Shown here one piece after another: positions 8,521 to 30,371 of a stretch of 37,808 bases of DNA. Where the stretch lies: the NCBI GenBank assembly GCA_018830525.1, contig JAHJSH010000020.1, positions 24,001 to 61,808 of the forward strand, given 5' to 3'. Each line of letters opens with the position of its first letter. Positions within the stretch are counted from its first letter, which is position 1. This DNA comes from Nanobdellota archaeon (GTDB lineage Archaea > Nanobdellota > Nanobdellia > Pacearchaeales > GW2011-AR1). The notes under the pieces are model-generated. The model saw nothing but the letters and a program-made list of their open reading frames with translations. It made no database searches and was not told where the DNA came from. A program made the position numbers and the translations under genes.

Positions 8521-11136
8521 CTAATCGTGAATCTCAAACCTAAGCAATCCACCCATTCCACCTAAATTATCGAATTGGACTCCCTCGGCGGTTTCATTTG
8601 TAACAATATGGATTTCAGTTGAAGATGCTTTTGCTAGTTTTTCTAACATTATTACTTTTTCTCGAGGGAGTGATTTGGAAAGGATTAGTTTATCTACAGC
8701 CCCCCGATTTAATCGATCTTCGACTTCAGCTTCCCCGTATGCGACTTTGTTCGGTTCTTTTGCTAGTCTCTCAAAAAATAAATCTAAGATTAATCTTTGT
8801 TTTGTTATTTCCTGTTCCGCTAAGACGTCCTCACAATTTTCAACTAATTCTTGGAGACCGTGCATTCCAGTTCCTCCGATATCTTTTATTGCGATTACTT
8901 TTTCTTTTAGTTTTGTAACAAGTTGTCCTTGTGCCAGAAATTCATCTTTTGTTGGAATTGGACCTCCAACAAGAATTCCTTTTAGTTTTTTATTATCCCA
9001 AAAATGTGTCTTCATATGTTCTGCTACTCTCTTGAAGAATTCTTTTGCTGCACTTTCCCGAATACGCGCGAATCTTTGTGCGGAATTATGGACAATTAAA
9101 CCATTTGCAATAAAATTTTTATCTCCTATGGAAATGTCAATCATGTTTATCTTCTTCTTGGTCTTCTCAATTTTATTAATTTGAATAGGTAAAACTGGGC
9201 AGTTATAAAATTTTTCTAATTCCTTAAATAACTTTTTATCTGGGATATTATTTAGGATTGATTTTTTGAATATTTCCTTACTTATCATTCTTTTATCCTG
9301 GAAAAAGCCACTAACTTTTGGAAATAGTTTTTTTACATTATAACCATAATCTTCTATAATATTTCTAACTTTTGAACCTGAAATCATTAACTGCCTTACG
9401 TTTGATTTGTCTGTTTTTCTATTTATGATATCATTTAACTTGTCTATTTTTACCAGGGAAGAAAATCCTATATTTTTCTTAAATAGTTCCATTGACTTTT
9501 TTTCAGTTATATCAATAGTAAATCTTGGATTGTTACTATATGGATTTTTTCTATTATCATACTCTTGTAATGAAGCTATGATTCCGAATCTTAAAAACAT
9601 TATTTGAATTTGCTGAGCGAAGATTTTATTATTTATTCCCAATCCGATTCCTCTGCTAAGATTAACGTAGCCTTCTGCATCAAAAAATCCCTTAAGAAAA
9701 AAAGCTATTATATCGTTGCTGGATCTTAATATCTTATCTGGAACTGTTGAATCTATCGCCTTTTTCAATTCTGGAAATTCTTCATTTATTAGGCGTACTA
9801 ATGGCCTACTTGTAAATCTTAATTGATGATAATTTTTATCTTCTCTGAATTTATAACTAGATTTGTAATTATAATATCTATCAAACTTCTCTTTATATGT
9901 TAAGGCTACTTGCTCATCTTGTTCGAAAAATGTAATTCTTCCTTTTTCTAAACTACTGTCTCCCGCAAAATATCCTATAAATTGGGCTAAGCTTTTATCG
10001 ATAGTTTTTGGTAAGGATATTTCTTTAGTCTTATATGGTTTGCAGAAATCTTTTAAAAATATTTTAAAATTAATATTTAATAGGTTGCATAAATTTTTTA
10101 GAATATTTTTATTAATATTTCTCTTACCTAGTTCTATTAAGGAGATTGCTGTTTGAGTTATGCCCAATTTTTTAGCTATTTGTTTTTGGTGTAACTTTCT
10201 ATTTAGCCTATTTTTTTTAAGTAATTTTATTCCACCCCTACTAATTGTAAAAGAATTGTAATATTTATTTATATCAAGGATTATTTGTATTGGATTAGTT
10301 TTTATTTTTTCTGGAAATACTAACTTATCGGTTATCTTAATTTCTTGTGCCGTTTTTTCTATAATGCCTTTATTTGTAGAAACAAAAAAGAGGTGGTCTT
10401 TGCTTGATTCAATTTCAATACGGGGATTTTTTGTAATTATTTTGTAAACTAAGTCTTTTTTTGCATCCCATTGATCTGTTACTTTTGAATCGTTAAGTGA
10501 TAAATCGTTTAATGAAATACTTTTAACAATATTACCTTTTTTACAATCTATGATTTTTAGTATTGAGCCCGAAGCTAACTGGACTAGGGAATCACTTTTG
10601 AGACATTGTCCTCCAGCCCGTGTTTTCCCAGGAATTCCTGAAGTCATGTTTTCTAATAATTTAATATGTTTTCCATCTAAAAGTCCAATTGATGCTTCAT
10701 TCCTTTCAATAATCAAGAGACCATAAACTTCATCAGTTTCTAGCATTTCTTTGAGAGGTTCTAAAACAAATGTTTGGTCACAACGGTAAATTTTAACCTT
10801 TAATTTTTTTGGAGGTTCAATTGCCCAAACTTCTAAACTTTCTTTTCCACCAGCCATAGTTACATTCCCGGAAAATACAGCAAGTCCATTTGGAGGAGTT
10901 CTTTCAATTTCTTTCAATTTTCTAATCGCCCGTTCTAAGGCATTAATAACATTTTTCCTTGTCCCGGTAGATTTGATATTTGTCGCCGTTCCTTTTTCAT
11001 CTTCTAATTGTTTTGTTGTTTGAGTTAGCGTAGCTCCTGACGGGATTAATACCGTGATTAACTCGGTGTGTTTCCCCCGGTATCTTTCAAGCTCTTCAAC
11101 GAGCGATTCAAGTTCATATTTTTGTGCTTCATTCAT
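8521..11136 (-). CDS. prf1: Archaeal peptide chain release factor 1 (aRF1) precursor with an intein after the GGQ motif
   Basis: This 871-residue precursor is the class-1 release factor that reads all stop codons and triggers peptide release. The N-extein (1-177) has the stop-codon-reading TNIKS loop (residues 52-56) and YRCDQTF (117-123), and ends in GKTRAGGQ, the catalytic GGQ loop. Residues 178-684 are an intein. The C-extein (685-871) resumes with SAQRFARIRE. Joined exteins give 364 residues, about 50 fewer than usual for aRF1. The third domain lacks the cysteine-bearing minidomain seen in many homologues but keeps the final GGMGGLLRFEIHD. A TATA-like TAAATAAA lies about 25 nt before the ATG, so the mRNA is probably leaderless. 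Without splicing the factor should be inactive, because GGQ is split from its conserved context. Confidence 0.97.
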   Translation of the reverse strand: MNEAQKYELESLVEELERYRGKHTELITVLIPSGATLTQTTKQLEDEKGTATNIKSTGTRKNVINALERAIRKLKEIERTPPNGLAVFSGNVTMAGGKESLEVWAIEPPKKLKVKIYRCDQTFVLEPLKEMLETDEVYGLLIIERNEASIGLLDGKHIKLLENMTSGIPGKTRAGGQCLKSDSLVQLASGSILKIIDCKKGNIVKSISLNDLSLNDSKVTDQWDAKKDLVYKIITKNPRIEIESSKDHLFFVSTNKGIIEKTAQEIKITDKLVFPEKIKTNPIQIILDINKYYNSFTISRGGIKLLKKNRLNRKLHQKQIAKKLGITQTAISLIELGKRNINKNILKNLCNLLNINFKIFLKDFCKPYKTKEISLPKTIDKSLAQFIGYFAGDSSLEKGRITFFEQDEQVALTYKEKFDRYYNYKSSYKFREDKNYHQLRFTSRPLVRLINEEFPELKKAIDSTVPDKILRSSNDIIAFFLKGFFDAEGYVNLSRGIGLGINNKIFAQQIQIMFLRFGIIASLQEYDNRKNPYSNNPRFTIDITEKKSMELFKKNIGFSSLVKIDKLNDIINRKTDKSNVRQLMISGSKVRNIIEDYGYNVKKLFPKVSGFFQDKRMISKEIFKKSILNNIPDKKLFKELEKFYNCPVLPIQINKIEKTKKKINMIDISIGDKNFIANGLIVHNSAQRFARIRESAAKEFFKRVAEHMKTHFWDNKKLKGILVGGPIPTKDEFLAQGQLVTKLKEKVIAIKDIGGTGMHGLQELVENCEDVLAEQEITKQRLILDLFFERLAKEPNKVAYGEAEVEDRLNRGAVDKLILSKSLPREKVIMLEKLAKASSTEIHIVTNETAEGVQFDNLGGMGGLLRFEIHD
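9085..10605 (-). mobile_element. Intein with LAGLIDADG homing endonuclease and HTH in aRF1
   Basis: This 507-residue intein sits between Gln177 of GGQ and Ser685 of the precursor. Splicing residues are all present: Cys1 in block A (CLKSDSLVQL), His71 in block B (SSKDHLFFV), block F (NMIDISIGDKNFIANG) and the end GLIVHN (His506, Asn507), with Ser as the +1 residue. Between the splicing halves lie an XRE-like helix-turn-helix (about intein residues 136-185, QKQIAKKLGITQTAISLIEL) and two LAGLIDADG helices, LAQFIGYFAGD (206-216) and FLKGFFDAEG (303-312), each with its catalytic Asp. The DNA looks more AT-rich than the flanking exteins. I expect both self-splicing and endonuclease activity, but neither can be proven from sequence. 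Confidence 0.95.
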
Positions 11137-29467: not shown

Positions 29468-29992
29468 TTAAGAGAACTCTAGGATTAATAGTTCCTCAAA
29501 AGGAATCTTCTCTCGAGCAACGAAAGTTGGATGAAACTTTTTAATTCTATCCTGGGGAGTTAGACTAGAAATTAGTAAAAATATCTTTCCATTTTTGTTG
29601 AGATGTTTTTTTGCTTGCGTTAAAAATTTAATAGAAATTTCATCCCCATATTTTCCACCAGTTGTCGCAATCTGAGAATCTTTAGGCTCTCTTGGGTCCA
29701 TTGGGAGATAGGGTGCATTAAAAGTTATTAAATCAAAATTCTCAGGTATTTTAGAAAAGAGATTTGTTTTTATCGCACTAAATCCCTTTTCTTTTACAAT
29801 TTTTATCGCATCGGGATTTATATCTGCGGACAGAATATTTTTCTTGTCTAGAAATTTTGAAGCAGTTTCTGAAAGAATCCCGGACCCAGTTCCCATGTCT
29901 AAATAAGAATTTATTTTATTTTTAGAGAGATAATTTTTTAAAAACTTAGAAAAGAAATATGAATCTTCTGCAGGTTGATAAACTTGGGCCAT
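29468..29992 (-). CDS. HemK2/Mtq2-like protein methyltransferase
   Basis: This 174-residue class I methyltransferase resembles archaeal HemK2/Mtq2, which methylates the Gln of the GGQ motif in the release factor. It opens with VYQPAEDSYFFSKFL (the family's VYxPxEDS start), then has the SAM-binding YLDMGTGSGILSETA and ILSADINPDAI, and the substrate loop FNAPYLPMD, where the usual NPPY reads NAPY. The last part, GKYGDEISIKFLTQAKKHL, also fits. An alternative TTG at 30004 is in frame, but the ATG at 29992 directly follows the previous stop. Its likely target, aRF1, is encoded in this window with an intein right after GGQ. Confidence 0.82.
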   Translation of the reverse strand: MAQVYQPAEDSYFFSKFLKNYLSKNKINSYLDMGTGSGILSETASKFLDKKNILSADINPDAIKIVKEKGFSAIKTNLFSKIPENFDLITFNAPYLPMDPREPKDSQIATTGGKYGDEISIKFLTQAKKHLNKNGKIFLLISSLTPQDRIKKFHPTFVAREKIPFEELLILEFS

Positions 29993-29993
29993 T

Positions 29994-30371
29994 TTAACCC
30001 CCAAACCATGAGTTCCAGAATAGTCCTAACACACCCGCACCTATAAGTATTAGTGAAGAAATTATGATTATGATTATGATTAAAAGTTTAGAGCTTTTCT
30101 TTGGTTGTATAGTAGCTTGAGCAGAGGATGTAGGGGGGAGCATTGCTGAAAAACTTCCTCCGGGTTTTCCGATAGGAGTTGTAGCTGTTGGAGTCGATAT
30201 CAGCGCAATTCCTTGGGGGAGTTTTTGCACTGCAGCGGCTATTTCCTGAGGCTGATAACCTGCATTTAAAAAAGTTTGTTGAGCCTTTGCTATACTCTCC
30301 CCCCGTTCAATAGCATTCCTTAATCCTCCAATTAATTCTTTTTCTCTACCTTGGTCAAGAGGTCCTACAAT
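29994..30371 (-). CDS. Small single-TM protein, start codon unclear
   Basis: The coding text runs from at least 30371 and includes KELIGGLRNAIERGESIA and QQTFLNAGYQPQEIAAAVQ, a helical motif of the AGY-x-x-x-EI type, then a Pro/Thr-rich linker and one C-terminal membrane segment (KLLIIIIIIISSLILIGAGVLG). Between the in-frame TGA overlapping the end of the RNase J gene and the GTG at 30230 there is no ATG, GTG or TTG, so translation may begin at the ATT at 30371, overlapping the RNase J stop. The GTG at 30230 would cut off the conserved part. No function is known. Confidence 0.6.
   Translation of the reverse strand: MVGPLDQGREKELIGGLRNAIERGESIAKAQQTFLNAGYQPQEIAAAVQKLPQGIALISTPTATTPIGKPGGSFSAMLPPTSSAQATIQPKKSSKLLIIIIIIISSLILIGAGVLGLFWNSWFGG

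What the first reader, a model, noticed from the sequence alone, without database searches (positions are those of the whole stretch)
9085..10605. Intein inserted directly after the catalytic GGQ of the translation release factor
The aRF1 reading frame runs GKTRAGGQ, then a 507-residue intein, then SAQRFARIRE. The host protein's catalytic loop is therefore cut at its most conserved point, and no other aRF1 gene is intact here. All splice residues (Cys1, block-B His, His-Asn end, Ser+1) and both LAGLIDADG Asp residues are visible, so splicing and homing both look possible. Peptide release on every mRNA would depend on protein splicing, including on aRF1's own message, which ends in TAG. Inteins favour active-site motifs, but I do not recall a well-studied case at the GGQ of an archaeal release factor. 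The novelty is unverified.
Basis: partly seen in the sequence, partly recalled or inferred. Interest (0 to 1): 0.85.

Follow-up and report, generated by a model that had tools for sequence, protein, structure and literature searches.

The report
Mobile intein in archaeal release factor GGQ
A self-splicing selfish protein element sits exactly in the catalytic loop of the only gene for the protein that ends translation in a small (DPANN) archaeon, and this report shows it is one allele of a large, apparently undescribed family that invades the same codon junction in roughly one in seven to one in four species of several DPANN phyla.

Summary
The only aRF1 gene in the assembly (window 8521-11136, minus strand) is split between Gln177 of GGQ and the next Ser by a 507-residue intein (9085-10605). 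It has Cys1, block-B His, His-Asn, Ser+1, an Xre-type HTH and a LAGLIDADG endonuclease with both catalytic Asp. Three congeneric genomes carry the same gene with an exact empty site. It is not a one-off. The same site is filled in 52 of 365 genomes of the phylum, 12 of 86 Aenigmatarchaeota and 21 of 87 Diapherotrites, and rarely in Micrarchaeota and Thaumarchaeota. All 89 distinct alleles keep every splicing residue; 69 are endonuclease-size and 20 are mini-inteins of 130-145 aa. Inteins are often more alike than their exteins, including across phyla, and have lower dS in close pairs, so horizontal homing is ongoing. I found no published report of this site in the open-access library. Splicing and cleavage are inferred from sequence, not shown. 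By-product: several DPANN lineages have replaced the 'universal' GGQ glutamine (GGW, GGM, GGF) in their only aRF1, usually with Gln two residues later. These genomes lack an above-cut-off MTQ2-type glutamine methyltransferase.

The parts
8521..11136 (-). aRF1 gene with in-frame intein (871-aa precursor, stop TAG at 8521-8523)
10606..11136 (-). N-extein, aRF1 residues 1-177, ending ...GKTRAGGQ
   Evidence: TIGR03676 profile 1-174; PDB aRF1/eRF1 matches
10606..10614 (-). GGQ codons GGA GGA CAA, immediately before the intein
9085..10605 (-). intein, 507 residues
10603..10605 (-). Cys1 (TGT), N-terminal splice nucleophile
   Evidence: 89/89 alleles Cys
10393..10395 (-). block-B His71
   Evidence: 89/89 alleles His
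10066..10221 (-). Xre-type helix-turn-helix (HTH_3) inside the intein, probably a DNA-recognition part of the endonuclease
   Evidence: Pfam HTH_3 E 3e-11; PDB HTH regulators; missing or reduced in 14 of 69 endonuclease-size alleles
9958..9960 (-). LAGLIDADG motif 1 catalytic Asp216
   Evidence: Asp in 63 of 69 endonuclease-size alleles
9466..9708 (-). LAGLIDADG_3 endonuclease domain match, with motif 2 Asp309 (9679-9681)
   Evidence: Pfam E 7e-17; Asp309 in 69/69
9085..9195 (-). C-terminal splicing part, blocks F and G, ending NFIANGLIVHN
   Evidence: Pfam Intein_splicing to residue 684; TIGR01443 E 0.012; 89/89 Asp, His, Asn
8521..9084 (-). C-extein, aRF1 residues 178-364 after splicing, starting Ser+1-AQRFARIRE; stop codon included
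29468..30004 (-). HemK2/MTQ2-family methyltransferase, expected to methylate the Gln of the reassembled GGQ
   Evidence: TIGR00537 104 bits, cut-off 87

Best explanation
It is a full-length LAGLIDADG homing intein, the local allele of an intein family specific to the GGQ^Ser junction of archaeal aRF1 (an 'aRF1-a' site). After translation the intein folds from its two halves and removes itself by standard class 1 chemistry: Cys1 N-S shift, transfer to Ser+1, Asn507 cyclisation, O-N shift. This rejoins GKTRAGGQ to SAQRFARIRE and gives a 364-residue aRF1. At DNA level the endonuclease, probably helped by its HTH, cuts intein-free aRF1 alleles at the conserved GGQ codons and the intein is copied in. 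The element is hard to lose because removal must be codon-exact in a single-copy, presumably essential gene. Shown here: anatomy, exact empty and filled sites, invariant splice residues, endonuclease residues under constraint, horizontal spread. Inferred: that this copy splices, that it still cuts DNA, and that host termination depends on it.
For: Domains and residues. Exact empty GGQ^S site in three congeners, exteins 88/83/74% identical to the spliced window aRF1. Same junction filled in 52 of 365 genomes of the phylum, all at profile position 174/175; 12 of 86 Aenigmatarchaeota; 21 of 87 Diapherotrites with zero hits of the control pattern. 89/89 alleles keep Cys1, His71, Asp490, His506, Asn507 and Ser+1. 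Intein more alike than extein in 728 of 3486 pairs, e.g. Diapherotrites L157 vs G213 of the window's family: 67% vs 40%. In close pairs intein dS is below extein dS (0.11 vs 0.34-0.42; 0.08 vs 0.16-0.21; 0.06 vs 0.32-0.68; 0.51 vs 0.84-1.40), with intein dN/dS 0.07-0.28 where computable. Tree mixes phyla with starred support. AlphaFold2 precursor model, pLDDT 87.6, matches both VMA intein 7qss and aRF1 4af1. Window intein GC 0.27 vs 0.37 for its exteins.
Against: No experimental evidence of splicing or cleavage. Motif 1 of this copy reads GDS rather than GDG. TIGR01445 scores 21.9 bits against a 24.5 cut-off, so the N-terminal half is divergent. The genome is an incomplete MAG, so a second aRF1 in the missing part cannot be excluded.
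Confidence: 0.93

Rival explanations
1. The intein has been domesticated as a post-translational switch: splicing of aRF1 is conditional (redox, metal, temperature, ribosome state), so the cell controls termination capacity through it.
For: Single-copy aRF1; strong constraint on all splice residues; 20 mini-inteins persist without an endonuclease; conditional splicing is documented for other archaeal inteins such as P. horikoshii RadA (PMC5790916, abstract seen).
Against: Patchy distribution: the three congeners sampled do without it, and most species in the phylum do. Splice-residue conservation is equally explained by the need to make aRF1 at all. Clear selfish mobility.
Confidence: 0.05
2. 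The element is splicing-dead and the gene is non-functional or makes two separate half-proteins; termination is done by an unassembled second aRF1.
For: The assembly is only 86% complete.
Against: Open frame through 871 codons, invariant splice residues, 88% extein identity to a congener. In 100%- and 98%-complete relatives the interrupted copy is also the only aRF1 (G059, G033).
Confidence: 0.01
3. Assembly chimera joining aRF1 halves with unrelated DNA.
For: Two relatives (G167, G328) have contig breaks inside the intein.
Against: In-frame, codon-exact insertion at the same junction in 89 distinct alleles, including two genomes deposited as complete (CP045477, CP058998).
Confidence: 0.01

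Closest known systems
Archaeal VMA inteins with associated homing endonuclease (TliVMA 7qss/7qsu, PhoVMA 7qst)
   Same: Best sequence and fold match in the PDB: Hint splicing domain plus LAGLIDADG endonuclease (sequence E 3e-10; TM-score 0.77 by target length)
   Different: Different host protein and site (V-ATPase catalytic subunit versus aRF1 GGQ loop), only about 16% identity over the structural alignment, and an Xre-like HTH before the endonuclease
PI-PfuI (1dq3) and PI-PkoII (2cw7) intein endonucleases
   Same: LAGLIDADG inteins from archaea; fold matches
   Different: Inserted in ribonucleotide reductase and DNA polymerase respectively (from memory); not alleles of this site
Intein in eukaryotic translation factor IF2/eIF5B
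   Same: A known case of an intein in a translation factor (listed in PMC5784728)
   Different: Initiation factor, not a release factor; eukaryotic host; sequence relationship not tested here

Membership tests
Intein (protein-splicing Hint element) | In-frame insertion whose removal restores an intact, conserved host protein | tested here: met
   Flanks align without gap to three intein-free congeners
Intein (protein-splicing Hint element) | N-terminal nucleophile Cys or Ser, block-B His, C-terminal Asn, and Cys/Ser/Thr at +1 | tested here: met
   C1, H71, H506-N507, S+1; invariant in 89 alleles
Intein (protein-splicing Hint element) | Profile match to an intein splicing domain | tested here: met
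   PF14890 64.5 bits, cut-off 35.8; TIGR01443 15.8 vs 15.6; TIGR01445 below cut-off, 21.9 vs 24.5
Intein (protein-splicing Hint element) | Actual excision and extein ligation | not testable with these tools
   Needs expression or proteomics
LAGLIDADG homing endonuclease | Two LAGLIDADG motifs with catalytic Asp | tested here: met
   Asp216 and Asp309 present; PF14528 E 7e-17
LAGLIDADG homing endonuclease | Site-specific cleavage of the intein-free allele | not testable with these tools
   Horizontal spread is indirect support only
aRF1/eRF1 class-1 release factor (extein) | Match to the aRF1 equivalog model over both extein halves, with GGQ | tested here: met
   TIGR03676 E 5e-109 with 364.7 bits, cut-off 234.7

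The most novel reading that the evidence does not exclude
Recurrent homing at the GGQ codon has shaped the release factor itself: aRF1-directed inteins impose a post-translational bottleneck on termination, and the loss of the universal glutamine in several DPANN lineages (GGW/GGM/GGF in their only aRF1, with Gln shifted two residues downstream and no MTQ2 methylase above cut-off) arose partly as escape from homing, followed by inteins re-adapting to the changed site.
Probability: 0.06. Interest if true: 0.92.

Novelty: new member of a known kind. Interest (0 to 1): 0.62.

Why it matters
It adds what appears to be an undescribed, heavily used intein insertion site in a core translation factor, at the residues that touch the peptidyl-transferase centre. 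It places termination in many DPANN species downstream of protein splicing. It also gives a rich natural series (empty, endonuclease-bearing and mini-intein alleles at one codon junction) for testing the homing cycle, and led to natural release factors without the GGQ glutamine, which bears on what that residue is for.

Tried and rejected
Split (trans-splicing) inteins: G167 and G328 first looked split across loci, but both halves run into contig ends. Viral carriage: no relative in IMG/VR contigs with this query. Wider spread in Thermoproteota: pattern found in 1 of 300 genomes, the centre itself; the pattern requires a GK...GGQC match, so variants could be missed. The pattern TRAGGQC found only 18 genomes because the flanking residues vary; the profile search was needed. 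G319 carried TRAGGQC outside its intact aRF1, so it was not counted. Literature searches for release-factor inteins gave nothing relevant.

Full report
CHECK OF THE OBSERVATION. The minus-strand ORF 8521-11136 encodes 871 residues that match the aRF1 equivalog model on both sides of a 507-residue insert. The insert starts right after Gln177 of GKTRAGGQ and ends right before SerAQRFARIRE; coordinates 9085-10605 are exact, and the stop codon is TAG. Pfam sees an intein splicing domain, a LAGLIDADG_3 endonuclease and an extra Cro/C1-type HTH at intein residues 129-180. No other eRF1 domain 2 gene exists in the 963-kb, 86%-complete assembly.

EMPTY SITE. Three genomes of the same genus (G244, G337, G341) carry intein-free aRF1 with GGQ directly followed by Ser. 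Their proteins are 88, 83 and 74% identical to the spliced window protein. The insertion is therefore codon-exact and differs between species of one genus, and its GC content (0.27) differs from its exteins (0.37).

HOW WIDESPREAD. A profile search for aRF1 over 371 genomes of the phylum (365 with a hit) showed that many had the gene split. Re-examining these, 51 plus the window have an insert at profile position 174/175, and the 49 that could be read through all begin with Cys and end His-Asn before Ser. A scan of one genome per species in GTDB 220 then gave named relatives: same-site aRF1 inteins in Woesearchaeota, other Nanoarchaeota, Aenigmatarchaeota, Diapherotrites (including complete genome CP045477), Micrarchaeota (including complete genome CP058998) and three Thaumarchaeota MAGs. 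Occupancy was 12 of 86 in Aenigmatarchaeota, 21 of 87 in Diapherotrites by pattern and 1 of 300 in Thermoproteota by pattern. One Thaumarchaeota genome (TA_8) has two inserts in aRF1, at profile positions about 115 and 174. No viral contig carried a relative.

FAMILY ANATOMY. Among 89 distinct alleles, Cys1, block-B His, block-F Asp, penultimate His, terminal Asn and Ser+1 are invariant. Sixty-nine are endonuclease-size (275-577 aa), with Asp309 in 69 and Asp216 in 63; 20 are mini-inteins of 130-145 aa. The HTH is missing or reduced in 14 of the 69. The alleles were selected with a pattern that requires Cys1 and HN-Ser, so those three positions are partly invariant by selection; however, none of the split genes at this site that could be read through failed the pattern except one with an assembly gap (L076) and one not followed up (L203).

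MOBILITY. In 728 of 3486 pairs the inteins are more alike than the exteins. Examples: a Diapherotrites intein is 67% identical to one from the window's own family while the exteins are 40%; another pair is 87% versus 59%. The window's intein is closest to alleles from other lineages (58-59%), whereas alleles in its own taxonomic family are a different subfamily (38-42%) or mini-inteins. In four close pairs synonymous divergence of the intein is lower than that of its exteins, and intein dN/dS is 0.07-0.28 where it could be computed. The intein tree mixes phyla under well supported branches. Contamination of MAGs could explain single cases (L151 is labelled a bacterium but carries aRF1) but not the pattern.

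STRUCTURE. An AlphaFold2 model of the whole precursor (pLDDT 87.6, pTM 0.63) keeps the aRF1 domains and a compact Hint plus endonuclease insert. Foldseek finds the archaeal VMA inteins (7qss) and PI-PfuI together with archaeal aRF1 (4af1) and eRF1. The only low-confidence stretch, residues 171-173, lies in the GGQ loop next to the junction.

HOW IT MOST LIKELY WORKS. Standard intein splicing after translation and standard LAGLIDADG homing at DNA level, in a site that resists loss because aRF1 is single-copy and presumably essential. This fits the finding that inteins preferentially occupy conserved sites, where imprecise loss and target escape are costly (PMC2814812). Splicing, DNA cleavage and dependence of termination on splicing are inferred. 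The aRF1 message itself ends in TAG, so its own release would need already spliced aRF1; that can be inherited from the mother cell and is no paradox (inference).

NOVELTY. No open-access paper found names an intein in aRF1 or eRF1; a 2018 catalogue of eukaryotic inteins lists eIF5B but does not mention a release factor. Subscription papers and curated intein databases were out of reach, so novelty is 'not found', not proven. The kind is known; the site and the extent appear to be new.

BY-PRODUCT: RELEASE FACTORS WITHOUT THE GGQ GLUTAMINE. In one family of the window's phylum (f15) and in many Aenigmatarchaeota the only aRF1 found reads GGW, and in a few GGM or GGF, with or without the intein. 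Of 25 such sequences 22 have Gln two residues later (GGxSQ), against 9 of 128 GGQ sequences (the sequences are related, so the p-value overstates the evidence). GGxSQ is the motif reported for aVLRF1 and acVLRF1 (PMC6514570). A HemK2/MTQ2-family methyltransferase, expected to modify the GGQ Gln, scores above its cut-off in 19 of 24 GGQ genomes and in 0 of 24 non-Q genomes, with two near misses. Alleles in GGW hosts fall mostly in their own intein clades. This deserves its own study; here it qualifies the statement that the intein sits at a universally conserved residue.

Noticed in passing
L112, L113, L222-L225, L228-L230, L232, L234-L237 (intein-free); L060, L080, L087, L156, L159, L167, L170, L175, L195, L204, L205 (with intein): The only aRF1 of several DPANN lineages lacks the GGQ glutamine (GGW, GGM, GGF), mostly with Gln at +2 (GGxSQ); these genomes also lack an above-cut-off HemK2/MTQ2 methyltransferase (0 of 24 versus 19 of 24 GGQ genomes).
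   Followed up: partly
G000 contigs C18, C22, C28, C32, C34 (loci L243-L252): The window's genome is rich in inteins: besides aRF1 they interrupt GyrA, GyrB, FtsZ, an ABC ATPase, PolD DP2, RadA (several), SRP54, anaerobic NTP reductase, MCM and two hosts not identified.
   Followed up: partly
L164 / G378:C78:1990-6306: A Thaumarchaeota MAG (TA_8) has two in-frame inserts in aRF1, one at profile position about 115 and one at the GGQ site.
   Followed up: no
window 29468-30004 (-): HemK2/MTQ2-family methyltransferase encoded in the same window as its expected substrate aRF1.
   Followed up: partly
L151: A contig binned as Falkowbacteria (a bacterium) carries an aRF1 intein and archaeal aRF1 C-extein, so it is probably a mis-binned archaeal contig.
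   Followed up: no
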